Positions 2,419 to 22,232 of a DNA stretch of 22,232 nucleotides are shown here, in pieces. Source of the DNA: a virus; IMG/VR virus record IMGVR_UViG_3300006033_000118, positions 1-22,232 of that record; one strand, written 5' to 3'. The position numbers were made by a program, and so were the translations under genes. Under the pieces are notes generated by a model. The model searched no databases and was not told the origin of the DNA. It saw nothing but the letters and a program-made list of their open reading frames with translations. Numbering within the stretch: the stretch's first letter is position 1; each line of letters opens with the position of its first letter.

Positions 2419-2423
2419 GGCGG

Positions 2424-3562: not shown

Positions 3563-3591
3563 GGTGGTTGATGCGGTCGGGGTGGCGCTGG

Positions 3592-3882: not shown

Positions 3883-3887
3883 GGCGG

Positions 3888-4163: not shown

Positions 4164-4245
4164 GGTGTGGGCTCCAGTGGGTGGGCTGCCTGGCGCCCTG
4201 CCCGGCCCGCTTGTGGCAGGCTGGGCAGGGGGTGCCGGGCTGGGC

Positions 4246-6216: not shown

Positions 6217-6268
6217 GCCGGCGATGGTGGGCCGGCTGCTGTGTCAAAGACAGGGGGAGTTTGAGACG
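6214..6268 (-). repeat. 55-bp direct repeat, copy A (upstream of protease-capsid gene)
   Basis: Bases 6214-6268 match 9921-9975 at 53 of 55 positions in the same orientation. In each copy the repeat ends exactly on the ATG of the following minus-strand gene. It contains the dyad TGTC-TTT-GACA and the -35-like hexamer TTGACA on the minus strand, but no good -10. Because a terminator (6280-6304) lies just upstream, the capsid operon needs its own promoter, and this repeat is the obvious place. It could be an activator-dependent late promoter. Confidence 0.85.
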
Positions 6269-6279
6269 ACACAGGCATG

Positions 6280-6304
6280 AAAAAGCCCGCGCTGGGCGGG
6301 CTTT
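6280..6304 (-). terminator. Intrinsic terminator after the SGNH hydrolase gene
   Basis: A 9-bp perfect stem (AAAGCCCGC / GCGGGCTTT, 6282-6290 with 6296-6304) has a 5-base loop. On the minus strand it is followed by a T run of five, three of which belong to the stem. It lies 25 bases after the hydrolase stop and before the 55-bp repeat. Confidence 0.75.
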
Positions 6305-6328
6305 GGCATGAACGCTTATATGTCAAAA

Positions 6329-7735: not shown

Positions 7736-9366
7736 GGCTGGGTGGCTCCGTTGGGGTTGGGTTCGTTGGGGTTCTGGCCGTCGCTGGCGGCTGCGGCGGG
7801 CGCGGCGGCCGGGCCGTCAAGGCCGGGGAATTTCAGACCCAGGCGCTGGCGCATCTCGCGGGCCTGGTTGATTTCGATGAGCAGGTCTTCGTAGTCCATG
7901 CCGAGCTTGGCGGCCACCTGTTGCGGGCTCTTGAGCCCGGCCTGGATGGCGGCCAGGTCGGCCTTGATGTCGCTGTTGGGGTCCACCCATTCCCAGCGCC
8001 GGCCCTGCCAGAGGTGGGCCGAGAATTTGTCGAGCTTGGCCAGGGGCAGCTGGCTTCCGCCGGGCAGGCGGATCTGGCCGAACAGCAGGGCGCTGGCCAG
8101 CCATTCCTGGTGCATGCGGTCGAGCACGGATTCGGCAAACCAGCCTTGCAGGATGGTCCAGTAGTCGCGGTCTTCCAGGGTGCCGCTGCGGATGCTGCTG
8201 AAGCTGACGCCTTCAAGGTTGTTGCCCACGCTGTGGTAGGCGGCAAGCAGGCCGCTGCAGGCGGCGCGCAGGTTGGCCGTGACGAAGGGCTCAAACATCT
8301 GCGCCGGGTAGTCCGGGTTGAAGGGGGTGAACTCGGTTCCGGCGGGCAGGCCCTGGAAGGTGCCGGGGTCGGCGTCCATGACCAGGGTTCCGAGGTCGCC
8401 CTCTTCTCCGTCTTGCCCGGTGGCGATTTCGGTGACGTCGCCCGTGGGGGTGGTGAAGAAGCCCATCTTGCTGGCGCCGACGCGGCTGGCGACGATGGCG
8501 GCTTCCTCGTAGGCGCCGATGTTGTTGAGCCGCTGCATGGCCGCGTGCGCCCAGGGGATGCCGCGCACCTGTTCGGGCCGGTCGGCCACGAATTCGTGGA
8601 TGACGTCTTCGGCCGGGATGCGCAGGGTCTGCATGCCGGCGGCGCCGACGGTGTGGTACTGCTCGCCGGGGTGGGTGTTGCGGATGTGGTAGGCCACCGG
8701 GCGGCCCCAGCGGTTGATTTCCACGCCCATGCGGATGGCGTTGCTGGTGCCGTCGGCGCTGCGGTTCAGGCGGGTTTCCATCCGGTCAGCGTCAATGAGG
8801 CGGAAGGCGATGCCGAAAGGGTTGCCGGCGTCGGCCGGGCCGCGCACGATCTGCATGAGCAGTTCGCCGTCGGTGGCCAGGGTCTTGATGGCGGTCTGCA
8901 GCATGGCGGCCAGGGTCTGGCGGCCGGTGACGTCGGCCACGCCTTTGCGGCCGAAGGCGGCCCAGGCGCTTTCCAGCGCGGCGTTGGCCGCGGCGTCTGG
9001 CACGCCGGGCCGGTCATACACCCGGGCCTGGTAGCGAAAGCCCTGCGGGCCGACGACGTTGGTGACCAGCAGGTGCAACCACTTGTGGATGTACTCGTTG
9101 TCGCGGGCGAGCTGGCGGCTGCGGGCGCGCAGGGCGTCCAGCGCGGCGTGGATGTCGCTGTTGGCACTGCCGCTGACGGTGGACCAGCCCTGGGTGAGGC
9201 GGTTGACCTGGGCGGCGGCGTAGCTGCGCTGGCGCTGAGGCGCCAGCATGCCGGCGCGCTGCAGGCCGCCGGGCCGCTGCGACAGCCAGGTGTTGAGGGT
9301 GGATGCGCCTTTGCGTTGCACGCGGCGGGCGTCGTACCAGATTGGGGCGGTGGCGGCGGTGCTCAT
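7732..9366 (-). CDS. Lambda-type phage portal protein (gpB-like)
   Basis: This 544-aa protein should form the dodecameric ring at the capsid vertex through which DNA enters and leaves. The N-terminus has a WSTVSGSANSDI...LRARSRQLARDNEYIHKWLHLLVTNVVG pattern that is characteristic of lambda-family portals (clip and stem helices follow). Further conserved segments are IRMGVEINRWGRPVAYHI and a C-terminal helical region. The length is typical for the family. The ATG overlaps the stop of the gpW-like gene (ATGA), as expected for translational coupling. The last 25 residues are Ala/Pro/Asn-rich and probably disordered. Confidence 0.92.
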   Translation of the reverse strand: MSTAATAPIWYDARRVQRKGASTLNTWLSQRPGGLQRAGMLAPQRQRSYAAAQVNRLTQGWSTVSGSANSDIHAALDALRARSRQLARDNEYIHKWLHLLVTNVVGPQGFRYQARVYDRPGVPDAAANAALESAWAAFGRKGVADVTGRQTLAAMLQTAIKTLATDGELLMQIVRGPADAGNPFGIAFRLIDADRMETRLNRSADGTSNAIRMGVEINRWGRPVAYHIRNTHPGEQYHTVGAAGMQTLRIPAEDVIHEFVADRPEQVRGIPWAHAAMQRLNNIGAYEEAAIVASRVGASKMGFFTTPTGDVTEIATGQDGEEGDLGTLVMDADPGTFQGLPAGTEFTPFNPDYPAQMFEPFVTANLRAACSGLLAAYHSVGNNLEGVSFSSIRSGTLEDRDYWTILQGWFAESVLDRMHQEWLASALLFGQIRLPGGSQLPLAKLDKFSAHLWQGRRWEWVDPNSDIKADLAAIQAGLKSPQQVAAKLGMDYEDLLIEINQAREMRQRLGLKFPGLDGPAAAPAAAASDGQNPNEPNPNGATQP

Positions 9367-9923
9367 CGGCTGGTGAACCTGACGGCCAGGGTGTTGCGCG
9401 TCGGCAGGCCGGCGGCGATGCGGGCGGCGTTGTCTTCGCGGGCCACTTCGGCGCTGAGCTTGTCGCGCAGGGCCATGAACTCGGCCGGGTTGCGGAAGGT
9501 CTGCTGCCGCCCGGCAATGCTGTAGGACTGCATGTAAGCCTTGGCGCCGTAAGCGGCCAGGGCGGTGTTCATGGCGTCCAGCGCCTGGCGGGCCGGGCTG
9601 CGGGTGTCCACTCCGCTGGTGGCAGCGGACAGGTTGGGCGCGATGGTCAGCCGCCCGTTGCCCACGGTGTGGCGGGTGGCCCCGAGGGTGACGGCGGCCG
9701 TCCAGGCGTAGCTGCCAGCGGCCCAGGCGGCCGTGGTGGCGGCTGCAACGCTGATGGCGTGCTCGTCACCACTGGCGGTAGCGGTGAAGTTGTAGGCAGC
9801 CGAGTTGCTGACGATGGCGTACCGCAGCACCCAGCCGGCGCTGGCAGGGTAGCTGGGCAGGCTCTTGACCCACTCAAGGGTGTCGCCCGCAGTGATGCGG
9901 TCAGGCTCTGTGGTGGCGGTCAT
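9363..9923 (-). CDS. gpW-like head-tail connector with an N-terminal beta domain
   Basis: This 186-aa protein lies between the large terminase and portal genes, where lambda has gpW (68 aa). Residues about 110-186 look gpW-like: a helix (RQALDAMNTALAAY), a beta hairpin (MQSYSIAGRQQTF), a second helix (PAEFMALRDKLSAEVARE) and a basic tail. Residues 1-105 are an extra beta-rich domain (GDTLEWVKSLPSYPASAGWVL onwards) that may be Ig-like. The C-terminal part should plug the portal channel and prepare it for the tail. The role of the extra domain is unknown. The gene starts directly at one copy of the 55-bp repeat and overlaps the portal start. The gpW assignment is by secondary-structure pattern and position only. 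Confidence 0.65.
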   Translation of the reverse strand: MTATTEPDRITAGDTLEWVKSLPSYPASAGWVLRYAIVSNSAAYNFTATASGDEHAISVAAATTAAWAAGSYAWTAAVTLGATRHTVGNGRLTIAPNLSAATSGVDTRSPARQALDAMNTALAAYGAKAYMQSYSIAGRQQTFRNPAEFMALRDKLSAEVAREDNAARIAAGLPTRNTLAVRFTSR

Positions 9924-9975
9924 GCCGCCGATGGTGGGCCGGCGGCTGTGTCAAAGACAGGGGGAGTTTGAGACG
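9921..9975 (-). repeat. 55-bp direct repeat, copy B (upstream of gpW-like gene)
   Basis: This is the second copy of the element at 6214-6268, differing at only two positions, and again ends on the ATG of the downstream gene (9923). It lies 42 bases after the stop of the Mor-like gene. Bases 9977-9988, just upstream, form a separate 12-bp palindrome (TTCGCCGGCGAA). See copy A for the possible promoter role. Confidence 0.85.
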
Positions 9976-10017
9976 GTTCGCCGGCGAATTCGTGTTCACT
10001 GCCTGCACGCCCATGCT

Positions 10018-10281
10018 TTACGACTTCTTGCGCATCGCCCGGTACACCGTGGACCGGCTCAGACCCGGCGCGCCGATGATGGTGCCCAGCTGGCGCTGGT
10101 GCCGCAGCCCGCTTTCAAGAATGCGCTGGCGCGTGGCGGTGCTCAGGCGCTTGCCGACGTAGGTTTCGCCACCCCCCCAAGCCTGGCGCAGATCCTGCTC
10201 AAGCCGGGTGGCTGCCAGGGGGTCAACCGTCGGCACCAGCGCAGCTAGGCGGCCGAGAAAGTCGTCAACGATGTCTGCCAT
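10018..10281 (-). CDS. Small helix-turn-helix protein, Mor-like C-terminus
   Basis: This 87-aa protein starts at ATG 10281 (MADIVDDFLGRL), 5 bases after the large terminase stop. A GTG at 10305 would add 8 residues and overlap the terminase end. Residues about 42-87 (GGGETYVGKR, then R..I, then GLSRSTVYRAMRKK) follow the order of the Mor/C activator family of phage Mu, with GGG.xY followed by a helix-turn-helix ending in TVYxAxR. Mor proteins dimerise and activate phage promoters. The N-terminal part is shorter than in Mu Mor (129 aa). Its neighbour is the 55-bp repeat that begins the gpW-like gene, so it could activate transcription there. It may instead be a small DNA-binding packaging factor. 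Confidence 0.65.
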   Translation of the reverse strand: MADIVDDFLGRLAALVPTVDPLAATRLEQDLRQAWGGGETYVGKRLSTATRQRILESGLRHQRQLGTIIGAPGLSRSTVYRAMRKKS

Positions 10282-10286
10282 GTTGG

Positions 10287-12467
10287 TCACCACTTCTTGA
10301 CCCACCCGGATTTTCTGGCCGGCAATGGGCTGAGCCTGGATGTGCGCTGCCCGGCCGCGCTGCTGGCGCTGCCGGGTGACGCTGCGGGTGCCCTTGTGGT
10401 GTCTGCGCGGCCGGTGGCCTGCGCAGGGTGTTGATGGCTTGGTGCGGCTGGCCGGCTTTCTTGAGCCTGTGATTCTGACGCCGCGACAGGTTCGATTGTC
10501 GCACCTTCTGCGTCAACGGTCAAGGCTTGCGGTTGTGGCGCTGGCGCTGCTGCCGGCTGGCCGCCAAACAGGTCGGCCGTGGATGGCGCCCAGCGCCGCT
10601 CGCGCCTGGCCCAGCTGGTTTCGCGGAACGACTGGATGCCCAGGTAGCAGGCGGCGGCATAGGCGTACACCATGCAGTCGCTGGCCTCGTCGCGCACGCC
10701 GCTGGGGGTCATCCACCGCATGCCGGGCTGGCCGCCAACGGTCACCGGCATGAGGCGCGCGGCGGTCATCTGCTCGAATTCGTCCGTCTCCAGGTAGGCC
10801 TTTGGAACGTGCATGTAGCCCGGCCCCACCGAGGTGATGCGCATGCGCCCGTACAGTAGGTGCTTGGCCGTGTCGGTGCCAATGGGCCAGAGCTTGACGC
10901 CGTTCTTGAGGGTGGAACCCCGGTAGTTCACGTCCACCCTGCTCGGCTTGCCCAGCACCGGCCCGCCGTATTTGCTGGCGCCCTTGACGGCCAGCACATG
11001 CGCGTGGGCGTGCGCCCGGCAGTAGGCATACACCGCGTTGGTGTTGTGCCCGCCAGTGTCGATGGCGGTGGCCTCAATGGGCATTTGCGTTCCGCAGGCG
11101 TGCGGCAGCAGGGTGCGGCGGATTTCGGTCAACCGGGTCCACGGGCTGCCTTCGGTGCCCTCTTCCAGGTTGGGGTCGCCGTGGATGATGTGCCGCTGCA
11201 CCAGCCACTTTTCCTCTCCGCGCCCGTAGGCCCACACGCGCGCCTCCAGCCGGTCGGGCTGGGTGTCAACGCCCATGGTCAACATCAAGCCGCCGCGCGG
11301 CACGATGTTGGTGGTGTAGTCCTCCACCCGGGCGGCCAGGCTCTTGCTGTCGGCGCCGGTGCCCTTCTCTTCCCACGTCTCGGCCAGGGAACTGTTCAGG
11401 AACTTCTTCAGCGGCGCGCTGTTGCCCACCCGCTGTGCTTTCTGGGCTTCGTGCCACTCTTCCACCAGGGCCGACCAGCTTTTCCAGCCCAGCGGGCTGT
11501 AGAGCTTGTTGAGCCAGAACCCGGCCCGCTTGCCCTGCCCTGCACCTGGCGCCTGGGCAATCCACAGGCCACCCTGCAGCATGTCGGTCTTGTGGTGTTC
11601 CTCGATCGCGGCGCCACAGTGCCGGCACACGTACACCGCGGTTTCTGGCCTGGGGTCACCGGCCGGCGTCTTGGCCCACTTCATGCCCCACGGCTCGGTG
11701 GCGCCCCACAGCAGGATCTGGCGCTCACCGCAGTGCGAGCACGGCACGTGGTACTGGCGCCGGTCGCTGGCCAGGTATTCGCGCTCCACCACGCTCAGGC
11801 CCTTGATGTTGCAGGTGCTGGCGATGATCAGTTTGCGCCGGGCAAAGTTGCTCATCCGCTCTTCCAGCAAGCCCAGCGGCGGGCCCTCGTTGTCCACGTC
11901 GTGCGGCCACTTGTCCACCTCGTCGGCAACGGCGAACCCCAGCGGCTTGGACGCCAGGCTGGCGGCCGAGTTCGCGCCGGCAAAGAACACGGTGAACCCG
12001 CCCTGGATGGATCGGCTGCGCCAGCTGGTCGACTCGTCGCGGCTCTTGCGCACGGCCACCTTGCCGTGCATCACCGGCGTCTGCATGATGGTCGGCAGAA
12101 ACCGCTGGCTGCTGTGGTCCTGCGCATCCTGCAGCGTGGGCTGCACCATCATCATGTCCTGCGGATCGGTGTGGATCCGCTGCATGACCGAGTTGTAAAG
12201 CACCTCGGACTTGCCCAGCTGCGTGGCAAACCACAGCACCACCCGCTCGTAGGGCTCGTGCGCGCTGGCGCAGCGCATCGGCTCCACCAGGTACGGCGTG
12301 CGCTCGTTGCGCCACGGCCCGCGCTCCGGCCCCTTGGCAATGTGCCGAAACCGCGCCGCCCATTCGGCGGTGTCCACACGCGGCGGCGGCCTAAGAAACT
12401 GCCGCTTGACCTCGGCCACCAGCTCGGCAGCACGGGCCTCGTCGTCAGGCAGGTCGCGGGCGCTCAA
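10287..12467 (-). CDS. terL: Terminase large subunit (GpA family)
   Basis: This 726-aa protein pumps DNA into the prohead with its ATPase and cuts concatemers with its nuclease. The Walker A-like loop is ATQLGKSE (residues 81-88), and Walker B with the catalytic Glu is FAVADEVDKWP (Asp182, Glu183). A zinc ribbon shows C243-x2-C246 and C281-x2-C284. The nuclease domain begins near GVDTQPDRLEARV with Asp401 as likely metal ligand. The fold and length match lambda GpA (641 aa). The last 80 residues are a low-complexity Ala/Pro/Ser/Gln tail, which explains the extra length. The start overlaps the small subunit stop by ATGA. Confidence 0.95.
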   Translation of the reverse strand: MSARDLPDDEARAAELVAEVKRQFLRPPPRVDTAEWAARFRHIAKGPERGPWRNERTPYLVEPMRCASAHEPYERVVLWFATQLGKSEVLYNSVMQRIHTDPQDMMMVQPTLQDAQDHSSQRFLPTIMQTPVMHGKVAVRKSRDESTSWRSRSIQGGFTVFFAGANSAASLASKPLGFAVADEVDKWPHDVDNEGPPLGLLEERMSNFARRKLIIASTCNIKGLSVVEREYLASDRRQYHVPCSHCGERQILLWGATEPWGMKWAKTPAGDPRPETAVYVCRHCGAAIEEHHKTDMLQGGLWIAQAPGAGQGKRAGFWLNKLYSPLGWKSWSALVEEWHEAQKAQRVGNSAPLKKFLNSSLAETWEEKGTGADSKSLAARVEDYTTNIVPRGGLMLTMGVDTQPDRLEARVWAYGRGEEKWLVQRHIIHGDPNLEEGTEGSPWTRLTEIRRTLLPHACGTQMPIEATAIDTGGHNTNAVYAYCRAHAHAHVLAVKGASKYGGPVLGKPSRVDVNYRGSTLKNGVKLWPIGTDTAKHLLYGRMRITSVGPGYMHVPKAYLETDEFEQMTAARLMPVTVGGQPGMRWMTPSGVRDEASDCMVYAYAAACYLGIQSFRETSWARRERRWAPSTADLFGGQPAAAPAPQPQALTVDAEGATIEPVAASESQAQESRPAAPSHQHPAQATGRADTTRAPAASPGSASSAAGQRTSRLSPLPARKSGWVKKW

Positions 12468-13090
12468 TCGAACGCTCCTTCGATGCGCTCCACCTCGTCG
12501 GCTGCACCGGCGAGGTCCTCGAGCGCCTTGTGGATCTCGGCATGCAGAAGGGTCTGCACCTCGGCCGCGTCGGACTTGGCCGCCAGCACCGGCCCCATGC
12601 GTGCCGGGATCTGCAGCAGCGCATCGCGCGTGGCCGCGAAGTCGGTAGCCATCTGCCGCTTCACCGCCGCCACCAGGATCACTTCGTGCCGCAGCTTCTG
12701 CTCGGCCAGCTCGGCAATGTTCGCCTCGGCGATCTCGCGCCGGGTGCGTGCGGCGTCCCGGTCCTCCACGCCATCGGGCGGCAGGTCGTCAGGGAGCGAC
12801 GCCCCAAACACGGGTCGGCCGCCGTGCATCACCTTGCCGCCGGGCACGTCAGCAAACGGGTCTCGCCCTTCGTTCCACGGCGCCCAGGCCCTGCGGTCCG
12901 GCGTCGCCGGCACGTCCGGCAGCGGCTTTCGCTGCGCCACGTTCTGCCGGGCCTCGCGCCACGCCTGGGCCGCCTCCACCGAGTCAACCGGCATGCCGGC
13001 CTGTTTGAGCTTCGTGATGGCGGCACCAGACAAGCCCAGCGCCCTGCCAAGCGCAGCTTGTGACAACCGTTTTCCATCGTTCTCGCTCAA
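12464..13090 (-). CDS. terS: Terminase small subunit (Nu1-like)
   Basis: This 208-aa protein should bind the packaging site and recruit the large subunit. Residues 9-35 (LSQAALGRALGLSGAAITKLKQAGMPV) form a winged helix-turn-helix of the Nu1 kind. A long helical middle segment follows (RTRREIAEANIAELAEQKL), then a C-terminal helical region. I chose the TTG start at 13090 because GAGGGG lies 6 bases upstream (13102-13097). An ATG a few bases inside the gene is in another frame. It overlaps the large subunit by 4 bases. Upstream is a repeat-rich intergenic region that could contain its binding site. Confidence 0.85.
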   Translation of the reverse strand: MSENDGKRLSQAALGRALGLSGAAITKLKQAGMPVDSVEAAQAWREARQNVAQRKPLPDVPATPDRRAWAPWNEGRDPFADVPGGKVMHGGRPVFGASLPDDLPPDGVEDRDAARTRREIAEANIAELAEQKLRHEVILVAAVKRQMATDFAATRDALLQIPARMGPVLAAKSDAAEVQTLLHAEIHKALEDLAGAADEVERIEGAFD

Positions 13091-13211
13091 TCGCTACCCC
13101 TCATCGTTTACCGTTAACCTTCACCATTCACCATTCACCAAACCCCTGCACTAGCGTGCCCGCGGGCTTCGAATTACCCTCGGGTGGGGGTTCTGTGGAA
13201 GGACCCATTTC
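13091..13211. other. Intergenic region upstream of small terminase: candidate cos/packaging site
   Basis: This is a 121-bp gap between the gpZ-like gene and the small terminase gene. It holds three perfect tandem copies of TTCACCA (13120-13140), preceded by two degenerate copies (TTACC at 13108, TTAACC at 13114), a 7-base period. It also holds the perfect palindrome GCCCGCGGGC at 13158-13167 and a short hairpin ACCCTCGGGT. In lambda-type phages cos lies directly upstream of the small terminase gene, with repeated binding sites for that protein. Position and structure suggest cos but do not prove it. Local AT content is above that of neighbours. Confidence 0.4.
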
Positions 13212-14015
13212 TCACTTGAACAGGCTGCCTTGCTGCGACAGGCGGGCGGTGCGCAGGGCCAGATCCCAGCTTTCATCCCAGTGGCGGCCGAAGTTCTGCT
13301 GGACCACGCGGTCGGCCAGTTCGAAGAAGCGGTAGCGCGGCCGGTAGTGGACGCGGGAGACGAACAGCATGACGGGCTTGACCGCCGTGCCCAAGGCACC
13401 GAAGCTGCGGCGCACCCAGATGCCGCGCGGCAGGTGTTGTGACTTCAGGCCGTTCTTCCAGGCGCCGCGCCCCGTCCATGAGCCTGGGCCGCGGCTGACG
13501 AAGTAGGCTTCTCGTTCGCGCTTGGCGCGGCTGCGTTTGCTGTTGGTGGCGTCGCTGTAGTCACCGACCACGGCGGCGGTCTTGAGCTGGCTGAGGATCT
13601 GCACGATCTGGCCGCGGCTGATGTTGCCGTATTGGTCCAGGCGTGCGCCTGCTGCAGGCACGGCGCGTTCGGTGGGCTGCATGTACCCGGCGCGCACGAG
13701 GCGTGCTTCGAAGCGCTTGAGCGGACGGTCACCGCCCTCGATCTGTGGCAGCAGGTAGTGGCTTGGTCGGTTGCCGTCCTTGAGCCAGACCTCGGCCTGG
13801 AGCTTCTGCTTGGTGGCTGGCTTGAGGTACACGCTGTTGCGGGTGTACGGCGTGGGGCGATCGAACACCCGCACGATTTCCTTGCGCTGGGCGTCTCGCA
13901 CGTCTTGCCCGGTTTTGGTCAGGGCGCGGGCCAGGGCGAATGGCACCTGGCGCTGGGCTCTTGCGAGAGCGGCCGAGACCTCGGGGAAGTTGTGGTTGAT
14001 GTTGATCTTGAGCAT
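13212..14015 (-). CDS. Minor tail protein Z-like (gpZ-like) phage protein
   Basis: This 267-aa protein has an N-terminus (MLKININHNFPEVSAALARAQRQVPFA with ALTKTGQDVRDAQRKEIVRVFDRP) that follows the pattern of lambda gpZ: a helix, then small-residue-rich helices and a basic segment, then beta strands. gpZ is needed for correct head-tail joining and DNA positioning in the tail. The rest is rich in Arg, Lys and aromatic residues and has no motif I recognise. In lambda gene Z lies between FII and U, whereas here those two are adjacent (3882 and 3562) and this gene is upstream of the terminase. Assignment is tentative. Another virion morphogenesis role is possible. Confidence 0.5.
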   Translation of the reverse strand: MLKININHNFPEVSAALARAQRQVPFALARALTKTGQDVRDAQRKEIVRVFDRPTPYTRNSVYLKPATKQKLQAEVWLKDGNRPSHYLLPQIEGGDRPLKRFEARLVRAGYMQPTERAVPAAGARLDQYGNISRGQIVQILSQLKTAAVVGDYSDATNSKRSRAKREREAYFVSRGPGSWTGRGAWKNGLKSQHLPRGIWVRRSFGALGTAVKPVMLFVSRVHYRPRYRFFELADRVVQQNFGRHWDESWDLALRTARLSQQGSLFK

Positions 14016-14027
14016 GTGGGTGTTCGA

Positions 14028-14252
14028 TCAGGTGGCCGCCTCGTAGGCGTAGCGCGAGCCTGACGGCACACGGCGCACGACGCCTGTGCACAGGCATTGC
14101 TGCAGGGCTTTGTTGGCAACCCAGAAAGGCCAGCCGGTGCATTCGACGATGTCGGTCAGGCCCATGGCGCCGTGCTCGAGCAGGCGCTTGAGGGCGTAGG
14201 TGCGCGGCATGGTGGCGCGCTGGCCGACGAAGCTGGCGGCGGGCCGGGTCAT
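14028..14252 (-). CDS. Small winged-helix-like phage protein
   Basis: This 74-aa protein starts at ATG 14252, overlapping the stop of the preceding 53-aa gene. Residues about 16-70 (TYALKRLLEHGAMGLTDIVECTGWPFWVANKALQQCL) have the alternation of helices typical of a winged helix-turn-helix: LTDI-x-ECTG as the turn and KALQQCL as the recognition helix. A short basic wing (RRVPSGSRYAYE) follows. It is probably a DNA-binding protein. In this region it may be a late regulator, but its target is unknown. Confidence 0.6.
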   Translation of the reverse strand: MTRPAASFVGQRATMPRTYALKRLLEHGAMGLTDIVECTGWPFWVANKALQQCLCTGVVRRVPSGSRYAYEAAT

Positions 14253-14410
14253 TTGAGGCCTTTCGGGACCGGAAGGCCCAGCGCCTCGTGGGCGAAGCGG
14301 TACACGGTGGGCGGGCGCTTCTCGCCGCGCAGGAACTGGGCGATGATGGCGCGGGCCCAGTCGCGCCCGTCGTTGCGCGGCGTTAGGTCTGGTGCGGGAT
14401 GGCTGGTCAT
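14249..14410 (-). CDS. Very small conserved-type phage protein (53 aa)
   Basis: The 53-aa reading frame from ATG 14410 to TGA 14249 overlaps its neighbours on both sides by ATGA, which is strong evidence for a real, translationally coupled gene. The N-terminus is Pro/Asp/Arg-rich, followed by a helix (DWARAIIAQFLRGEKRPPTVY). It has no domain I can name. Its place just after the replication gene suggests a small accessory to replication or packaging. Confidence 0.6.
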   Translation of the reverse strand: MTSHPAPDLTPRNDGRDWARAIIAQFLRGEKRPPTVYRFAHEALGLPVPKGLK

Positions 14411-15387
14411 GCGGCCTCCGTGCTGCGGTTGTCGGCCTGGCTGGCGCGGGCTTGCCGCACCCTGTCGGCGTAGGTGGACCAGGGCACGGTGCGGCCGTGC
14501 CTGTCGAGCTGCTGCCAGCGCCCGAGGCCCAGGCGTTCGCCGTCGGCCTCAATGGCGGCGCGGCTGTCGGGGTCGATGGGCGGGCCGGGTGGCGGCGCTG
14601 GCGGCAGGTCGGCGGCCGATGCGGCGTCGCGGCGCTGGCCCTCGGCCCTGGCCAGCGCCCACGGAAAACCCCGGCCGGCCTTGACGGCGGAGCGGGCGGC
14701 CTCGGCCAGTTCCGACGCGGTGATGCCGGCAGCGACCAGGGCGACCAGCCGGGGGTGGCTGGCGCTGACGTCGGCCAGCCCGACGGCCTGCATGGCCTGG
14801 GCGGCCTGCTGCGCTGGGTCGGCGGCGGCATGGTCGGGCGACAAGCCCGACACCGCAGGGTCTGCACCCGCAGGGTCTGCAAAACCGGCGCGCGCCGGGC
14901 CGGCAGGCCCGACGGGTGGACCGCCGCGCTGTTGGTGTCCAGATGGCTCGCTCGATTCTTGGTTACTGGTGTCTGGTGTCTGGTGATTGGGAGCATTGCC
15001 ATCGCAATGCGTTCGCATATGCGTTCGCATTGCGTTCGCACCTGCGTTCGCATTGCGTTCGGTTTGCGGCTGACCCTTCTTCCAGCGTGCGTTCGCAGAT
15101 GCGGCGGCCTTGCGCTGCTTCTCCTGATAGCGGTCAATCTCACGGTCGCAGCGACCGTGGCGCAGCAGGTCGCCGTCCACGGTGAAGAACTCATCGAGCA
15201 CGTTGCGCAGGGCGTCGCGCTCTTCCTTGGTGCGCACACCGCTCAGGCGCTCCACCTGAGCGGCTGGAATCGGCGCCTCGCGGGTGTAGTACACGTCCAG
15301 CAGGCGCCCGTAGACACCGTGCTCCAGCAGCGACAGGTGCGCCGTGTCCTTCAGGTAGTCGCCAATGTGGCGCTCGTAGTAGTTCAA
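14407..15387 (-). CDS. DUF1376/YdaU-family phage replication protein
   Basis: This is a 326-aa protein. Residues 1 to about 95 are a DUF1376 domain (MNYYERHIGDYLKDTAHLSLLEHGVYGRLLDVYY, then the RYQEKQRKAAASANARW helix). This domain is found in phage replication initiators such as YdaU of the Rac prophage. Residues about 110-130 are encoded by iterons (see 15008-15097), giving an Asn/Ala/Arg/His-rich segment. The rest is Pro/Ala-rich, with a helical part near 200-260 that could bind a helicase loader. No primase or helicase motif is visible. It is probably the lambda O equivalent: it binds the origin and recruits host helicase. It overlaps the next gene by ATGA. Confidence 0.8.
   Translation of the reverse strand: MNYYERHIGDYLKDTAHLSLLEHGVYGRLLDVYYTREAPIPAAQVERLSGVRTKEERDALRNVLDEFFTVDGDLLRHGRCDREIDRYQEKQRKAAASANARWKKGQPQTERNANAGANAMRTHMRTHCDGNAPNHQTPDTSNQESSEPSGHQQRGGPPVGPAGPARAGFADPAGADPAVSGLSPDHAAADPAQQAAQAMQAVGLADVSASHPRLVALVAAGITASELAEAARSAVKAGRGFPWALARAEGQRRDAASAADLPPAPPPGPPIDPDSRAAIEADGERLGLGRWQQLDRHGRTVPWSTYADRVRQARASQADNRSTEAA
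15008..15097. repeat. Helically phased iterons: candidate replication origin
   Basis: Five perfect copies of TGCGTTCGCA start at 15008, 15020, 15031, 15043 and 15088, with an 8/10 copy at 15054. The first five units are spaced 11-12 bases, near one helical turn, and the last lies about three turns away. Each is a near palindrome (TGCG-NN-CGCA). They lie inside the replication gene, as lambda iterons lie inside gene O. On one side is a stretch of about 53% GC (14941-15000) against about 68% around it, which could serve as the unwinding region. Confidence 0.7.
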
Positions 15388-15433
15388 GAGCAGGCCTCCT
15401 ACCGTCGTTGCATCGGCTGCGGTATCGGGGCGC

Positions 15434-15757
15434 TCATGCGCACAGACGCGCCTGGCGCAGCGGGATGAACCAGAGGTGGCTGGTCTTGCCTGTCAGGGGG
15501 TTCAGCTTGCGCTCTTCGGACTGCTGGACCAGGCCGGCGTCGCGCATTTCGTCAAGCCGGCCGGTGACCCAGCCCTTGTCGAAGCGGCGGGGGGCGTGGA
15601 TCTGTTCCAGCGCCTCGCGGATTTCGCTGGCGGTGAGTTCGGCCTGCCCGTGCCGCTGGCGGGCGATGAGGATGTCCAGCACCATCTTGTGACTGGGGCG
15701 CAGGGGCGCGGCGGTGCTGCGCTCGGCCAAGGTATCGGGGGCGGTGGTGACGGTCAT
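15434..15757 (-). CDS. Winged-helix-type small phage protein
   Basis: This is a 107-aa protein from ATG 15757, overlapping the CII-like stop by ATGA. The centre (residues about 22-80) is built like a winged helix: HKMVLDILIARQ, LTASEIREALEQI, GWVTGRLDEMRDAGLVQQ, and a wing KLNPLTGKTSHLWFI. The N-terminal 20 residues are disordered. It is probably DNA binding. Placed between CII-like and the replication gene, it could assist origin recognition or regulate the early operon, but no partner can be named. Confidence 0.65.
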   Translation of the reverse strand: MTVTTAPDTLAERSTAAPLRPSHKMVLDILIARQRHGQAELTASEIREALEQIHAPRRFDKGWVTGRLDEMRDAGLVQQSEERKLNPLTGKTSHLWFIPLRQARLCA

Positions 15758-16125
15758 GCTGCAACCCCCAACACGCGACGCATGGCGGCCAGGTCGTCGC
15801 GCAGGCGGCGGTTCTCGGCTTCCAGGGCGCTCTCGCGGCGACGCACGCTGTGCAGGTCGTAACCGCGCTGGTGCAGCATCCAGAGCACAGGCGCGTCGTT
15901 GCCGCACTTGTCCATGAGCGCGGTGAACTTGGCCCACTGCACGCCCTCGGTGCCGCTTTGCCACCGGCTGAATTGCGCTTTGTCGACGCCCAGCTCCTGC
16001 TGCAGCGTCTTGTCCAGCGCGTAGCCGCCCAGTTCGGCGCACAGTTCGATGGCGCCGCCCAGGCTTTGCTTGCGCATCACCTCGGCGGGACGGACGTCGA
16101 CGGGGATCGAAATCTGTTGGTTCAT
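15754..16125 (-). CDS. CII-like transcriptional activator
   Basis: This is a 123-aa protein. I start it at ATG 16125 (MNQQISIPVDV) with GAGG 4-5 bases upstream; the longer frame from 16203 would run through the terminator. The core QQELGVDKAQFSRWQSGTEGV corresponds to the helix-turn-helix of lambda CII (AVGVDKSQISRWK). The C-terminal 30 residues form a charged coiled-coil helix (RRRESALEAENRRLRDD) suited to oligomerisation, and the protein is somewhat longer than CII (97 aa). CII activates the establishment promoter for cI. Its position downstream of cro and a tR1-like terminator matches lambda. Another HTH regulator family is possible. Confidence 0.65.
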   Translation of the reverse strand: MNQQISIPVDVRPAEVMRKQSLGGAIELCAELGGYALDKTLQQELGVDKAQFSRWQSGTEGVQWAKFTALMDKCGNDAPVLWMLHQRGYDLHSVRRRESALEAENRRLRDDLAAMRRVLGVAA

Positions 16126-16750: not shown

Positions 16751-17005
16751 TCACGCCACCCCCTGCGCTTGGCTGGTCTCGGCGGAGGTATCGGGGGACA
16801 GATCGGCCGGTCCGTAGATGTCCTCGTAGGTCACCACATGGCCGAGCGACTTGGCCCAGCTGATGAGCCGCTTGGCCGTTTCGGGCGGCACCGTCTGGCC
16901 GCGCGTCTCGTAGTGCCCCACATTGCCCTGCGTGCAGCCGATTGCCTCTGCCAGGGAAGCCTGTGTGACGCCCAGGCGCTCGCGGATGAGTTTGATGTGG
17001 TTCAT
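16751..17005 (-). CDS. Cro-like helix-turn-helix repressor
   Basis: This 84-aa DNA-binding protein has a helix-turn-helix at residues about 11-33 (LGVTQASLAEAIGCTQGNVG). The C-terminal 20 residues are Ser/Thr/Ala-rich and probably disordered. It is divergent to the CI-type repressor, and the gap holds the operator pair, so it is the lytic-side repressor (Cro role). ATG 17005 follows the predicted promoter closely and has no clear Shine-Dalgarno, leaving only a short leader. The length is that of Cro/YdaS-like proteins. It should repress cI and fine-tune its own promoter. Confidence 0.85.
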   Translation of the reverse strand: MNHIKLIRERLGVTQASLAEAIGCTQGNVGHYETRGQTVPPETAKRLISWAKSLGHVVTYEDIYGPADLSPDTSAETSQAQGVA

Positions 17006-17013: not shown

Positions 17014-17054
17014 ATTAGTCGGACTGCGATCTAGTTTATCGCAGTCTGACTAAT
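17014..17054. promoter_or_regulatory. Operator pair OR between cro-like and cI-like genes
   Basis: Two copies of the 12-mer ATTAGTCGGACT face each other, at 17014-17025 and, reversed with one base change, at 17043-17054. They form a 41-bp inverted repeat with 17-bp arms, a 7-bp spacer and one mismatch. Each site has the symmetric core AGTC-N-GACT. The same 12-mer recurs three times near 19489-19568. It is the probable binding site of the CI and Cro-like proteins. Confidence 0.85.
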
Positions 17055-17088: not shown

Positions 17089-17814
17089 ATGCCTACAAGA
17101 CCGACAACACCGGAGCAAAAACAGGATGCCAAGCGCCTTGAGGCCCTGTTTCAGGAGTGGCTGAAAGCAACTGGTGACCGCACCGGCGCCAGACCGACCC
17201 AAGAGTCCGTAGCGGCAGCGATCGGCATCAGCCAATCCGCCCTGTCCCAGCGCCTGCGGGGGAAAATGGCCATGTCTCGCGACTTTGCTACTGCGATTGC
17301 CAAGCTGATCGGCTGCGAGGTTCCGGACTTTTCCCCGACGCTTGCTGCGGAGATTGCAGGTCTGGCAGAAGGGCTCAAGTCCACCGACCCCGACGAGTTT
17401 GCGCAGGTGCGCCGCGTGGACGTGTCGGTGTCGGCCGGCCACGGCGCCCTGGTGGTCGAGGAATACAGCAAGAGCGCCCTCACCTTCCGCCGCAGCTTTC
17501 TGCAGGAGATCGGGGTCACCCCCAGCAGCGCGGTGATCGTCACCGTCAAGGGCCGCAGCATGGAGCCGACCATCCGCGACGGCGCGGTGCTGCTGGTGAG
17601 CACCAGCGCCAAGACAGTGATCAATGGCGAGGTGTACGCCTTTCGCGGTGACGGGCAACTCTACGTCAAGCGCCTGCACCGCCAATCAGACGCCAGCCTG
17701 CTGGCCATCAGCGACAACCCCGACCGAGAGGCCTACCCCGACATGCACATTGCAGCCTACGATCAGGACTTTGAGATCATCGGCCGGGCGCTGTGGATGG
17801 GGGCCAGGCTCTGA
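17089..17814 (+). CDS. CI-type phage repressor with S24 self-cleavage domain
   Basis: This 241-aa protein maintains lysogeny. The N-terminal helix-turn-helix (residues about 37-60, TQESVAAAIGISQSALSQRL) binds operators. The C-terminal LexA/CI-like S24 domain has the likely scissile Ala116-Gly117 (VSAGHGA), nucleophile Ser157 (GRSMEPTIRDG) and general base Lys194 (YVKRL). RecA-stimulated self-cleavage after DNA damage would induce the phage. It is divergent from the Cro-like gene across the operators, with 83 bases between. No strong Shine-Dalgarno is seen, consistent with a near-leaderless message. A membrane protein gene follows 56 bases later and may be co-transcribed. Confidence 0.92.
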   Translation: MPTRPTTPEQKQDAKRLEALFQEWLKATGDRTGARPTQESVAAAIGISQSALSQRLRGKMAMSRDFATAIAKLIGCEVPDFSPTLAAEIAGLAEGLKSTDPDEFAQVRRVDVSVSAGHGALVVEEYSKSALTFRRSFLQEIGVTPSSAVIVTVKGRSMEPTIRDGAVLLVSTSAKTVINGEVYAFRGDGQLYVKRLHRQSDASLLAISDNPDREAYPDMHIAAYDQDFEIIGRALWMGARL

Positions 17815-17870: not shown

Positions 17871-18785
17871 ATGACCGGCATGAGCGCAAAAATCCATTTT
17901 TCCATCAAGTACGACGGCCCTGCCCTGGCGAGCCACCAGATGGATGTGCGAGAGCTTGCGCCCGCGTTGATTGCGCTGTCCGAGTTGATCGAACACGCCA
18001 ACAAAGCAGCCTATCCCGACGCAAACGAAGTGCGCGTGAACGTCCAAGGCAACTTCAAAGGCGGGTCTTTTGGGGTCGACCTCATTGCGGTTCAGACAAT
18101 GGCCCAGCAGCTCGTCAGCCTGCTCAACGGAGAGGAAGCTACTGCAGCTGCCAACCTTTTTGGCATTTTGGCCGGCCTGGGACTTCTTGGTCACGGCGGC
18201 GTCATCGGCCTGATCAAGTGGCTTCGTGGGCGCAAACCCAGCACCATTCGAACCGTCGGCGACAAGGTTGTTTTCGAACTGGTGGACGCAGAGGAAAAAG
18301 AGACCTTCGAGGTTGATCTGATCACTGGAAAGCTGTACCAGACCCGCGTGGTTCGCCAAACATTGGCCAGGGTCGTCAAACCGCTGGAGCGCGAGGGCGT
18401 TGACGTCTTCGCCTGCGGCAAAGATGGCGAAACTCAAGCCGTGGTAACCAGCGATGAGCGCGCCTGGTTCGACATGGCCGCCAGCGAGGCCGATGTGGTG
18501 TCCAACACCGTGCGCCAGAACGTCCTGCTTCAAATTGAGTCGGCGGTCTTCAAAGAGGAAAACAAGTGGAGATTCCACGATGGATCAACCGCTTTTTTTG
18601 CCGAGATCACCGACCGAAGTTTTGTTGACAAGATCAACGCAGGCGCAGAGCGGTTCGGAAAAGGCGATGTACTCATTGCAGACCTTCGCATCGTTCAAAG
18701 CGTGACAGATGGCGGGCTTCGGCAGGAGTACCAGGTCGAGCGAGTGCACGACCACCGCGAACCGTTACAGCAGAAGCTGACCTGA
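17871..18785 (+). CDS. Accessory protein with one membrane segment, rexA-like position
   Basis: This is a 304-aa protein of a family I cannot name. It starts at ATG 17871 (or 17880), both with weak ribosome signals. Residues 7-87 form a soluble domain (AKIHFSIKYDGPALASHQMDVRELAPALIAL, then VRVNVQGNFKGGSFGVDLI). Residues about 93-117 are a hydrophobic segment rich in Gly/Leu followed by basic WLRGRKP, so the C-terminal 180 residues would be cytoplasmic. That part is beta-rich with no known enzyme motif. It lies 56 bases downstream of cI, probably expressed in the lysogen, and ends at a strong terminator. GC is about 53-55%, against about 70% in virion genes, suggesting transfer. The position equals lambda rexA; an exclusion or defence role is inference. 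Confidence 0.8.
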   Translation: MTGMSAKIHFSIKYDGPALASHQMDVRELAPALIALSELIEHANKAAYPDANEVRVNVQGNFKGGSFGVDLIAVQTMAQQLVSLLNGEEATAAANLFGILAGLGLLGHGGVIGLIKWLRGRKPSTIRTVGDKVVFELVDAEEKETFEVDLITGKLYQTRVVRQTLARVVKPLEREGVDVFACGKDGETQAVVTSDERAWFDMAASEADVVSNTVRQNVLLQIESAVFKEENKWRFHDGSTAFFAEITDRSFVDKINAGAERFGKGDVLIADLRIVQSVTDGGLRQEYQVERVHDHREPLQQKLT

Positions 18786-18814
18786 AAAACCACCCACCCG
18801 GGTGGTTTTTTCTT
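18785..18814 (+). terminator. Strong intrinsic terminator after the membrane protein gene
   Basis: An 11-bp perfect stem (AAAAACCACCC / GGGTGGTTTTT, 18785-18795 with 18800-18810) has a 4-base loop and then TCTT. The stop codon of the preceding gene overlaps the first base of the stem. It is nearly symmetric and could act in both directions. It separates the cI operon from the lipoprotein gene. Confidence 0.9.
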
Positions 18815-18847
18815 GCGCCATCCCCCATTCGATGGATGCCGCGATCA

Positions 18848-18875
18848 TGTAACAAGTCGTAGTAGTACCTATGAT
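18848..18875 (+). promoter_or_regulatory. Possible promoter of the lipoprotein gene
   Basis: TATGAT (18870-18875) is a good -10 match, with a weak TGTAAC (18848-18853) 16 bases upstream. The next gene starts at 18907, giving a leader of about 25 bases. The strong terminator upstream makes a separate promoter necessary. No AGTCNGACT operator is visible here, so expression in the lysogen is plausible. Confidence 0.4.
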
Positions 18876-18906
18876 GAGAGATCGATCACCACCAGAGTCA
18901 AGAACC

Positions 18907-19434
18907 ATGAAGACCATCAAGATCTCGGCAGTCGTTGCCTTGCTTGCGCTCGCATTGGCTGGCTGCGTAACACAGCCACCCCGCAAGACACTTCTGACCG
19001 CAGAAGACACAGCCGCCGCCGTCCAGGTTTCAAGGGACGACTTCAAGAAGGTGACACACTTCACCGGCACTGGCATCGGAGACGGCTCCGATGAGGTTTT
19101 GTTCCTTCGCGCCTGGAAGGCCGACGGCATGCCAACAAGGTACCAGGTCTATGTGGCCGACTTCTACAGAAGCGAGTGGCGGTTCTACGAATCAGCTCAT
19201 GACATTGATGGCAACACCCTGGACGTCACCTTGATCGACCGAAAGGTGGGGGCCTGCAGCCGTTACAGCGGCTGCTCACACCACGAGCACTTGGCAATCA
19301 ACATTTCTCGAGAGTACCTTGAGCAACGAGTGCCCAGCGGCATGAGCTTCCAGATCAGCGGAAAAGGTGGCAAGGAGGTGTTTTTCGTACCAGGTTTCCA
19401 CATCGCTGGATTCCTGGCCAGCACCCAAAAATAG
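18907..19434 (+). CDS. Phage-encoded lipoprotein, rexB-like position
   Basis: This 175-aa protein has a lipoprotein signal peptide: basic MKTIK, a hydrophobic core to residue 18, and lipobox LAGC with Cys20. It should be lipidated and exported to the periplasmic face of a membrane. Asp is not at the +2 position (Val follows), which predicts sorting to the outer membrane. The mature part is soluble, has a Cys pair in CSRYSGC, and a HHEH segment. I do not recognise the family. I chose ATG 18907 because it begins the signal peptide; an upstream ATG at 18871 would add a charged extension. It stands between two strong terminators with its own promoter, at lower GC than virion genes. Blocking infection by related phages or altering the surface are possible roles. 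Confidence 0.85.
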   Translation: MKTIKISAVVALLALALAGCVTQPPRKTLLTAEDTAAAVQVSRDDFKKVTHFTGTGIGDGSDEVLFLRAWKADGMPTRYQVYVADFYRSEWRFYESAHDIDGNTLDVTLIDRKVGACSRYSGCSHHEHLAINISREYLEQRVPSGMSFQISGKGGKEVFFVPGFHIAGFLASTQK

Positions 19435-19452: not shown

Positions 19453-19477
19453 AGCCACCACGGAGGTGGCTTTTTTT
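19453..19477 (+). terminator. Intrinsic terminator after the lipoprotein gene
   Basis: A 7-bp perfect stem (AGCCACC / GGTGGCT, 19453-19459 with 19465-19471) has a 5-base loop and then six T. It isolates the lipoprotein gene from the early promoter region. Confidence 0.9.
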
Positions 19478-19488
19478 GCTCGGTCCAC

Positions 19489-19500
19489 ATTAGTCGGACT
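19489..19500 (+). promoter_or_regulatory. Operator OL copy 1 (ATTAGTCGGACT)
   Basis: This is an exact copy of the 12-mer found between the cro-like and cI-like genes. It lies 41 bases upstream of the second copy. Confidence 0.8.
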
Positions 19501-19529
19501 GTTGTATTTGAGCAAATTCGCACCTTCAT

Positions 19530-19541
19530 ATTAGTCGGACT
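19530..19541 (+). promoter_or_regulatory. Operator OL copy 2 (ATTAGTCGGACT)
   Basis: This is an exact copy whose last base is the first base of the -35 hexamer TTGACT (19541-19546). Bound repressor would cover the -35 region. Confidence 0.85.
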
Positions 19542-19570
19542 TGACTTAAATGTTTGAGTCCGACTAATAT
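19541..19570 (+). promoter_or_regulatory. Early rightward promoter (PL-like)
   Basis: The -35 is TTGACT (19541-19546), the spacer 18 bases, and the -10 TAATAT (19565-19570). Start of transcription would be near 19577, giving a leader of about 29 bases before the first gene. Operators touch the -35 and overlap the -10. This should drive the operon from 19606. Confidence 0.7.
19557..19568 (-). promoter_or_regulatory. Operator OL copy 3 (reversed)
   Basis: AGTCCGACTAAT is the exact reverse complement of ATTAGTCGGACT. It overlaps the start of the -10 region, so it lies opposite copy 2 across the promoter. Confidence 0.85.
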
Positions 19571-20737: not shown

Positions 20738-21358
20738 ATGCGCGTTTACCTGAGCGGCCCCATGACGGGCATCGAAGACAACAACTTCCCCGAGTTCCAC
20801 AAGTGGGCCGAAGTGCTGAGGTCCAGCGGCCTTGACGTCGTCAGTCCGGCAGAGATCCAGGAAGCCGGCACCTGGGAACTGTGCCTGCGCTCCGACCTGC
20901 GCGAGTTGTGCACCTGCGACGCGATCGCTCTCATGCCCGGATGGGAGAACAGCAAGGGCGCCAACCTGGAGTTGCACGTTGCACACCGCCTTGGCATGCA
21001 GGTGATGCACCTGCCGCTTCAGTTTGACCTGGTCACACACCTGCACCGCCAGCGCGCCTTCAGCCTACGCACTTTCGGCCCCGGCGATCGCACTGACGGC
21101 GTGTGCGACCACATCCGAAAAGAACTGCTGGAGGTGCAAGACGACGCGGGCGCAGGCCTTCCCACGCTGGACGAGTGGGTTGACGTGATCATCCTCGGCT
21201 TCGATGGCGCATGGCGCTCTGGTGCAACGCCTGAGCAGATCGTCCGGGCCATCGAGCGCAAACAGGACAAGAACGAGGGCCGCAAGTGGCCGGACTGGCG
21301 CACCCAGGACCCTGGCAAGGCCATCGAACACGACCGCACCGCCGACGTGAATGCCTGA
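20738..21358 (+). CDS. DUF4406 - DUF550 (MazG-like) fusion, nucleotide metabolism
   Basis: This is a 206-aa, two-domain protein. Residues 1 to about 92 are DUF4406 (YLSGPMTGIEDNNFPEF, VSPAEI, then LMPGWENSKGANLELHVA), related to nucleoside 2-deoxyribosyltransferases. Residues about 95-190 are DUF550, a MazG-like dATP/dGTP pyrophosphohydrolase. The metal ligands E129-x2-E132 and E146-x2-D149 form the EXXE...EXXD pattern, and the end KNEGRKWPDWRT is typical. It probably hydrolyses a nucleotide and removes or exchanges its base during infection. GGAG stands 9 bases before the ATG. Both domains occur as separate phage genes; the joined form is less common in my experience. Role in nucleotide supply or in avoiding nucleotide-based defence is inference. 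Confidence 0.85.
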   Translation: MRVYLSGPMTGIEDNNFPEFHKWAEVLRSSGLDVVSPAEIQEAGTWELCLRSDLRELCTCDAIALMPGWENSKGANLELHVAHRLGMQVMHLPLQFDLVTHLHRQRAFSLRTFGPGDRTDGVCDHIRKELLEVQDDAGAGLPTLDEWVDVIILGFDGAWRSGATPEQIVRAIERKQDKNEGRKWPDWRTQDPGKAIEHDRTADVNA

Positions 21359-21372: not shown

Positions 21373-22011
21373 ATGAGCAACGCATACCGCCCCCGCACCG
21401 GATCGCTGGCCGAGCAGGTCATCAACCACCTCCGCGCCAACCCGGGCGCCGAGCTGACCAGCAAAGACATCGCCACAAAGTTCAACGCCTCGCGCAACAG
21501 CGTGTTCGCCAACCTGGAAACGGCCGTGCACCGTGGCGCCCTCACCATGACGCGCAACGACGATCTGGAATACGTCTACCGCGCCGGCGGCGGCCGTTCC
21601 AGCCACCCCGCGCCCGTCGCGCCGGTGTGGCCGCCCATTCCTGGCAAAGCCACCACCCCCAGCGACACCAGCGAAGCGGCCAGCAGCGACACCGGTACCG
21701 CCCCCACCGTCAAGTCACAGCGCGGCACCGCGCAGGCCCAGGTGTCCGTCACCGCGGCCGAGATCGAGGCGCTGGAGGTGGAAACCGGCATCCCCATCGG
21801 CACCCAGGGCCGCACCGTAGACAAGTGGGCGCCCCTGTTCAACAAGCTGACCACACCGGGCACGTCTGTGCGCTTTCCCGCGCGCTGGAAGAGCGCCGTG
21901 GCCGCCCAGGCCACCAAGCGCAACCGCCAGGCCAAGGCCGCCGGCTACGGCACCGAATACAAGGTGCGCATCATCAGCGCCGAGCATGCGCGCGTGTGGA
22001 GGATTGCATGA
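21373..22011 (+). CDS. Winged-helix early phage protein
   Basis: This is a 212-aa protein from ATG 21373, with no clear Shine-Dalgarno and 14 bases after the previous stop. Residues 10-65 (LAEQVINHLRANPGAELTSKDIATKFNASRNSVFANLETAVHRGAL) form a winged helix-turn-helix. A Pro/Ser/Thr-rich linker covers about 75-130. The C-terminal part (VTAAEIEALEVETGIPI...FNKLTTPGTSVRFPARWKSAVAAQATKRN) is compact, with a basic end. It is probably a DNA-binding protein of the early operon that works with the ParB-like protein encoded by the overlapping next gene. No target site can be named. Confidence 0.7.
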   Translation: MSNAYRPRTGSLAEQVINHLRANPGAELTSKDIATKFNASRNSVFANLETAVHRGALTMTRNDDLEYVYRAGGGRSSHPAPVAPVWPPIPGKATTPSDTSEAASSDTGTAPTVKSQRGTAQAQVSVTAAEIEALEVETGIPIGTQGRTVDKWAPLFNKLTTPGTSVRFPARWKSAVAAQATKRNRQAKAAGYGTEYKVRIISAEHARVWRIA

Positions 22012-22047
22012 CCACCCCCGACACCTTTGCGCACATCCCGCTGGCGC
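22008..22047 (+). CDS. ParB-like protein, start only (plus-strand copy)
   Basis: The ATG at 22008 overlaps the previous stop (ATGA) and encodes MTTPDTFAHIPLA before the sequence folds back at 22047. On the plus strand the frame then leaves the gene. The true continuation is on the minus strand, at 22122-22048 (see the next entry). The gene is the seventh of the early operon. Confidence 0.7.
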
Positions 22048-22162
22048 GGATGCTCTCGGCCAGTTCGTGCAGCTTGACCGGGTTGAAGTGCTTGCGCGGG
22101 TTGGTGCGGCTGGCGACGATGTGCGCCAGCGGGATGTGCGCAAAGGTGTCGGGGGTGGTCAT
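22048..22162 (-). CDS. ParB/Srx-like nuclease-fold protein, N-terminal 38 residues
   Basis: Read on the minus strand from ATG 22162, the sequence gives 38 residues: MTTPDTFAHIPLAHIVASR, then TNPRKHFNPVKLHELAESI. This is the start of a ParB-family domain (IPLAHI..S..NPRKHF...KLHELAESI). Phages use such proteins as plasmid-type partition factors, transcription factors or nucleases. The last 25 codons lie in the spacer of the inverted repeat and are the only copy of that sequence. Beyond 22048 the frame enters the fold-back and is not real. Confidence 0.7.
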
Positions 22163-22232
22163 GCAATCCTCCACACGCGCGCATGCTCGGCGCTGATGAT
22201 GCGCACCTTGTATTCGGTGCCGTAGCCGGCGG

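What the first reader, a model, noticed from the sequence alone, without database searches (positions are those of the whole stretch)
17871..19434. Two low-GC accessory genes in the rexAB position: a one-pass membrane protein and a lipoprotein
Between cI and the second operator cluster lie a 304-aa protein with one hydrophobic segment (residues 93-117) and a 175-aa lipoprotein (Cys20). Both have GC of about 53-60%, well below the virion genes, and each ends at a strong terminator. Lambda carries the rexAB exclusion genes in the same place, and expression in the lysogen is expected. I recognise neither family, so this is the best candidate for an undescribed prophage defence or surface-exclusion system.
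Basis: partly seen in the sequence, partly recalled or inferred. Interest (0 to 1): 0.75.

Follow-up and report, generated by a model that had tools for sequence, protein, structure and literature searches.

The report
Candidate phage-defence gene beside prophage repressor
Next to its repressor gene this temperate phage carries one gene from a widespread family already listed as a candidate anti-phage defence gene but never tested, plus a separate, unrelated surface-lipoprotein gene, so this is a good test case rather than a wholly new kind of system.

Summary
The layout is real. Identical operator half-sites (ATTAGTCGGACT) bracket cI (17089-17814), a 304-aa protein (17871-18785) and a 175-aa lipoprotein (18907-19434), as lambda OR/OL bracket cI-rexAB. 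Both accessory genes are low in GC and each ends at a terminator.

The 304-aa protein is not unknown. It belongs to PADLOC candidate PDC-S42 (E=5.5e-87), NCBIfam LAPAL (E=6.6e-84, 'putative phage structural protein') and phrog_3243. I retrieved about 110 non-redundant relatives. They sit behind cI-type repressors, beside integrases, solitary in chromosomes, or antisense to Mu-like structural genes. This argues against a structural role and for a lysogen-expressed cargo gene. Its C-terminal module is shared with Pipsqueaks gp31, which lies in the mycobacteriophage cluster-N defence locus. Its fold resembles a phage DUF6575 protein; DUF6575 is the toxin domain of the validated system PD-T4-10, but sequence comparison did not support homology. 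Most likely it is a single-gene, prophage-expressed anti-phage protein. Mechanism is inferred, and no activity has been shown.

The lipoprotein belongs to a mostly chromosomal family with an immunoglobulin-like predicted fold. It is a separate transcription unit, absent from the related phage contigs tested, so the two genes are not a rexAB-type pair.

The parts
16751..17005 (-). small HTH (Cro/CII-like) regulator, divergent from cI
   Evidence: Pfam HTH_31 E=6.8e-8, HTH_3 E=2.9e-7; phrog transcriptional regulators
17014..17054 (.). first operator cluster (OR-like): inverted ATTAGTCGGACT / AGTCTGACTAAT
   Evidence: 17-nt arms, 94% complementary; exact half-site count
17089..17814 (+). cI-type repressor, HTH + S24 peptidase-like domain
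   Evidence: Peptidase_S24 E=1.4e-24, HTH_3 E=5.9e-7; phrog_4 E=1.9e-45
17871..18785 (+). 304-aa PDC-S42 / LAPAL / phrog_3243 protein; candidate prophage-encoded anti-phage gene; alternative start 17880
   Evidence: relatives; model
18785..18814 (+). intrinsic terminator after the 304-aa gene
   Evidence: -17.2 kcal/mol, z=-3.9; palindrome I5
18907..19434 (+). 175-aa lipoprotein (Cys20), independent cargo gene, Ig-like beta-sandwich model
19453..19479 (+). intrinsic terminator after the lipoprotein gene (7-bp stem, T7)
19489..19568 (.). second operator cluster (OL-like): three ATTAGTCGGACT half-sites; sigma-70-like promoter 19541-19570 overlaps it

Best explanation
The 304-aa gene is a single-gene, lysogen-expressed anti-phage (superinfection-exclusion or abortive-infection) determinant of the PDC-S42/LAPAL family, carried as cargo just downstream of cI and read with it. 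Shown: position, family membership, and domain layout (N-terminal alpha/beta domain 1-75, Gly/Ala-rich hydrophobic helical segment 88-118, C-terminal beta module about 125-300). Inferred: the C-terminal module, which resembles OB-type folds only weakly, recognises an invading phage's nucleic acid or a replication product, and the hydrophobic segment brings the protein to or into the inner membrane to stop the infected cell, i.e. a one-chain analogue of what RexA (sensor) and RexB (membrane effector) do together. The lipoprotein next to it is a separate lysogenic-conversion gene of a mostly chromosomal envelope-lipoprotein family, not a partner.
For: PADLOC PDC-S42 E=5.5e-87. About 110 non-redundant relatives with scattered distribution: several phyla but only 6 of 401 genomes over cut-off in the Hydrogenophaga family, with some decayed copies (L045, L062, L086). 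Context: an S24/HTH repressor directly upstream on the same strand in 12 loci including the window; integrase within 800 nt in 8; 26 of 44 non-redundant phage loci have a repressor/HTH gene or integrase within 3 kb. Isolated temperate phages show the same: Lactobacillus A2 ORF19 (lysin/int boundary), Listeria vB_LmoS_188 ORF27 (next to int), Bifidobacterium PMBT6 (next to int). C-terminal module shared with Pipsqueaks gp31 (hhalign 97%, E=2e-11; gp31 hits the PDC-S42 profile at 8.7e-13); gp31 lies between the lysis genes and int, in the central variable region to which all characterised cluster-N defences map (PMC7542560). Best viral fold hit is a DUF6575 protein, E=2.7e-7; DUF6575 proteins match PD-T4-10_B, the toxin of a validated anti-phage toxin-antitoxin system (PMC9519451).
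Against: No member is experimentally tested in any paper found. Defence-island enrichment was not shown: immediate neighbours and genes 6-10 kb away both contain defence genes. No PDB fold match at E<=0.001. Sequence comparison with DUF6575 is not significant (E=0.02, probability 2.4%). The hydrophobic segment is weak in some relatives. NCBIfam calls the family structural.
Confidence: 0.5

Rival explanations
1. The 304-aa protein is an accessory factor of the phage's own lysogeny (tuning repression, immunity, integration or induction) rather than a defence against other phages.
For: Recurrent location beside cI-type repressors and integrases; overlap or near-overlap with cI in L006 and L091.
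Against: Many relatives are solitary in chromosomes with no phage gene adjacent and occur in Mu-like phages with other regulation; the C-terminal module occurs in a protein beside restriction genes (L184).
Confidence: 0.2
2. It is a lysogenic-conversion or maintenance protein (toxin-like or host-physiology gene) without an anti-phage role.
For: Solitary chromosomal copies between housekeeping genes; fold resemblance to a DUF6575 protein, the PD-T4-10_B toxin domain.
Against: No antitoxin-like partner gene next to it here; scattered distribution, prophage cargo position and link to the cluster-N defence locus fit defence better.
Confidence: 0.15
3. It is a virion structural protein, as the NCBIfam name says.
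For: NF053583 'LAPAL motif-containing putative phage structural protein'; some members lie within Mu-like structural regions.
Against: In the structural regions of L017, L081, L090, L095 and L189 it is transcribed opposite to the structural genes (same strand in L052, L098, L113). Elsewhere it sits with repressor or integrase, and many copies are in chromosomes without phage genes.
Confidence: 0.05
4. The 304-aa protein and the lipoprotein are one two-gene exclusion system, a functional RexAB pair.
For: Adjacent, same strand, between the two operator clusters.
Against: A strong terminator separates them. The lipoprotein is absent from L006, L091 and the two host genomes with the closest relatives, and its family is otherwise found apart.
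Confidence: 0.04

Closest known systems
PADLOC PDC-S42 (PDLC05015) / NCBIfam NF053583 LAPAL_fam / phrog_3243
   Same: Full-length profile matches, E=5.5e-87, 6.6e-84 and 3.8e-67; the same family under three names
   Different: Nothing tested differs; its function is predicted only (defence candidate versus structural protein)
Mycobacterium phage Pipsqueaks gp31
   Same: Shares the C-terminal module (hhalign E=2e-11) and lies in the cluster-N defence locus (PMC7542560)
   Different: 184 aa: lacks the N-terminal domain and the hydrophobic segment; no published test of gp31 found
PD-T4-10 (DUF6575 toxin with antitoxin)
   Same: Overall fold of a phage DUF6575 protein resembles the model (Foldseek E=2.7e-7)
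   Different: No DUF6575 domain by sequence, profile comparison not significant, no partner antitoxin gene
Lambda rexAB (and the Rex-like Sbash, CarolAnn and Butters systems)
   Same: Downstream of cI between two operator clusters; expected lysogenic expression
   Different: One protein with at most one hydrophobic segment instead of a soluble plus polytopic pair; no Rex family match
DUF7946-DUF7947 proteins
   Same: Weak N-terminal resemblance (E=0.015; E=0.003); L187 has one two genes downstream of an S24 repressor
   Different: Different C-terminal domain; below Pfam cut-off

Membership tests
PDC-S42 / LAPAL_fam | Full-length match to the family profile above curated cut-off | tested here: met
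   281.7 bits against cut-off 60; PDLC05015 E=5.5e-87 over 7-301
PDC-S42 / LAPAL_fam | Anti-phage activity | not testable with these tools
   No assay; no paper found naming the family
LAPAL_fam as phage structural protein | Encoded with and co-oriented to structural genes | tested here: not met
   Here it lies with cI; in Mu-like loci L017, L081, L090, L095 and L189 it is antisense to structural genes, though same strand in L052, L098, L113
Lambda RexAB | Position between cI and the second operator cluster | tested here: met
Lambda RexAB | Co-transcribed two-gene pair with polytopic RexB | tested here: not met
   Terminator between the genes; at most one hydrophobic segment
PD-T4-10 | DUF6575 / PD-T4-10_B profile match | tested here: not met
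   No PF20215 match at E<=1; no PD-T4-10 model at E<=10; hhalign E=0.02
PD-T4-10 | Antitoxin gene (PD-T4-10_A) beside it | tested here: not met
   Neighbours are cI and a lipoprotein; neither accessory protein matches PD-T4-10 models
Ltp-type superinfection-exclusion lipoprotein (for the 175-aa protein) | Lipobox plus the conserved Ltp (host cell surface-exposed lipoprotein) domain | tested here: not met
   Lipobox present, but no such Pfam match; modelled as a beta sandwich

The most novel reading that the evidence does not exclude
PDC-S42/LAPAL proteins are single-chain sensor-effector exclusion proteins: a C-terminal beta module, shared with a cluster-N mycobacteriophage gene and related in fold to the PD-T4-10 toxin, recognises infection, and a hydrophobic segment attacks or signals at the membrane. 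They would be a widespread prophage defence class across Gram-negative and Gram-positive hosts, currently mislabelled as structural.
Probability: 0.25. Interest if true: 0.7.

Novelty: new member of a known kind. Interest (0 to 1): 0.45.

Why it matters
The family is widespread in temperate phages of Gram-negative and Gram-positive hosts and carries two conflicting database labels, defence candidate and structural protein. The context survey here argues for the first. Showing protection by one member would assign a function to a whole PHROG family, correct an NCBI annotation, and link an untested gene of the cluster-N mycobacteriophage defence locus to a broader fold group. The window member is convenient to test because it is one gene directly behind cI.

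Tried and rejected
A close relative of the lipoprotein in viral contigs: none; its 5-sequence alignment was too diverse for that search. Solved relatives by sequence: none for either protein. A PDB fold match for either model at E<=0.001: none; the lipoprotein's antibody-domain hits reflect only an Ig-like sandwich. Defence-island enrichment: near (112 proteins, 243 PADLOC families matched) and far (85 proteins, 111 families) sets both hold strong defence hits, and the tool does not count distinct proteins, so this is inconclusive. DUF6575 homology by sequence: not significant, and DUF6575 was found in only 1 of 151 and 2 of 398 genomes. A close phage relative of the virion part of the window (1-16000): none. 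Literature on PDC-S42, LAPAL or DUF7946: none held; Dedrick 2017 (cluster-N defence) is not held.

Full report
WHAT IS THERE. The window is a 22,232-base IMG/VR viral record. It holds portal, head-tail joining and minor-tail genes on the minus strand, a small divergent HTH gene, and a cI-type S24 repressor at 17089-17814. Identical operator half-sites (ATTAGTCGGACT) lie on both sides of the block: an inverted pair at 17014-17054 and three copies at 19489-19568. There are no other exact copies in the window. Between them, all on the plus strand, are cI, the 304-aa gene, a terminator, the 175-aa lipoprotein gene and a second terminator. This is the lambda OR-cI-rexA-rexB-OL layout. The GC drop is real. 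The gap between cI and the 304-aa gene is 57 nt with no terminator-like hairpin, so shared transcription with cI is likely but not shown.

THE 304-AA PROTEIN. It matches PADLOC PDC-S42, NCBIfam LAPAL_fam and phrog_3243 over its full length. Pfam has no family for it; DUF7946 matches 38 N-terminal residues below cut-off. I retrieved 75 loci in viral contigs and the best 80 of 122 in bacterial genomes. These reduce to 110 groups at 85% identity, and the bacterial records span Proteobacteria, Desulfobacterota, Acidobacteria, Bacteroidota, Bacillota, Actinomycetota and Patescibacteria.

CONTEXT SURVEY. A repressor directly upstream on the same strand is found in 12 loci including the window; an integrase within 800 nt in 8; and a repressor/HTH gene or integrase within 3 kb in 26 of the 44 non-redundant phage loci. 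The repressor profile was iterated and also picks up small HTH genes, so it counts lysogeny-module neighbours rather than cI proper. In L006 and L091 the gene overlaps or nearly overlaps the end of cI. In isolated temperate phages it lies next to int (Lactobacillus A2, Listeria vB_LmoS_188, Bifidobacterium PMBT6). Pfam scans of immediate neighbours in phage loci are led by Peptidase_S24, HTH, integrase, amidase and Bro-N. In bacterial chromosomes the neighbours are diverse housekeeping or mobile genes. In Mu-like prophages (L017, L081, L090, L095, L189) the gene is antisense to the structural genes. This is the pattern of a mobile cargo gene expressed in the lysogen, not of a virion component, so I consider the NCBIfam product name misleading.

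STRUCTURE. AlphaFold2 with 100 homologues gives pLDDT 87.9, pTM 0.78: an N-terminal alpha/beta domain, a hydrophobic helical segment at 88-118, and a C-terminal beta-rich module carrying several of the most conserved residues (W233, D248, F262 and D266 are invariant). No solved structure matches at E<=0.001; the weak hits are mostly SEA, HIN-200, RPA and SSB domains. The two matches at E<=0.001 among viral models are a DUF6575 protein (E=2.7e-7) and Mycobacterium phage Pipsqueaks A0A142K7V1 (E=1.6e-6). The second is identified by its 184-aa length as gp31 of KU935730, located between the lysis genes and int. Sequence profiles confirm that link (E=2e-11; PDC-S42 hit 8.7e-13). The published Butters work states that all characterised cluster-N prophage defences map to this variable region (PMC7542560). 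DUF6575 proteins match PD-T4-10_B, and PD-T4-10 is an experimentally validated anti-phage toxin-antitoxin system (PMC9519451). The sequence test of the DUF6575 link was not significant, so I treat it as fold resemblance only. The C-terminal module also occurs in a protein beside an HsdR-like fragment (L184).

THE LIPOPROTEIN. It has a canonical lipobox and, in most relatives, a conserved cysteine pair (C117, C123). Its family occurs in about 1-2% of genomes sampled (5 of 401; 8 of 398). Copies are mostly chromosomal, one is next to a tyrosine recombinase (L162), and some are in prophages (Acinetobacter; L196). The model is a confident beta sandwich (pLDDT 86.9) with only weak Ig-like hits. Two related cI-linked phage contigs (L006, L091) and the two genomes with the closest relatives of the 304-aa protein (L009, L010) lack it. 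It is an independent cargo gene; an envelope role is all the evidence allows.

JUDGEMENT. What this work adds is the context evidence against the structural label, the shared module with a gene in a known prophage defence locus, and the separation of the two genes into independent units. The mechanism stays inferred. I found no published test of any family member.

Noticed in passing
window 21937-22046 and 22123-22232: Exact 110-nt inverted copy at the contig end; looks like an assembly artefact.
   Followed up: partly
window 20738-21358: Early-operon protein fusing DUF4406 with a dATP/dGTP pyrophosphohydrolase domain (PF04447, E=5.2e-19).
   Followed up: no
L187 2598-3401: DUF7946-DUF7947 protein two genes downstream of an S24 repressor: a different family in a similar rex-like position, with weak N-terminal resemblance to the LAPAL family.
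   Followed up: partly
L115 between cI and the LAPAL gene: An apparently unrelated small lipoprotein gene sits between the repressor and the LAPAL gene.
   Followed up: no
L178 2573-4278 and L177 230-1867: DUF6575 genes on Pantoea and Oscillatoria plasmids each follow a gene of about 135 aa (PD-T4-10_A-like in Oscillatoria): PD-T4-10-type pairs.
   Followed up: partly
L162 134-1938: The closest relative of the lipoprotein (53%) is the C-terminal part of a longer protein next to a tyrosine recombinase fragment that resembles an integron integrase (resemblance judged by eye).
   Followed up: no
L045, L062, L086: Burkholderia and Allopusillimonas copies of the LAPAL gene appear truncated or frameshifted, i.e. 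decaying.
   Followed up: no
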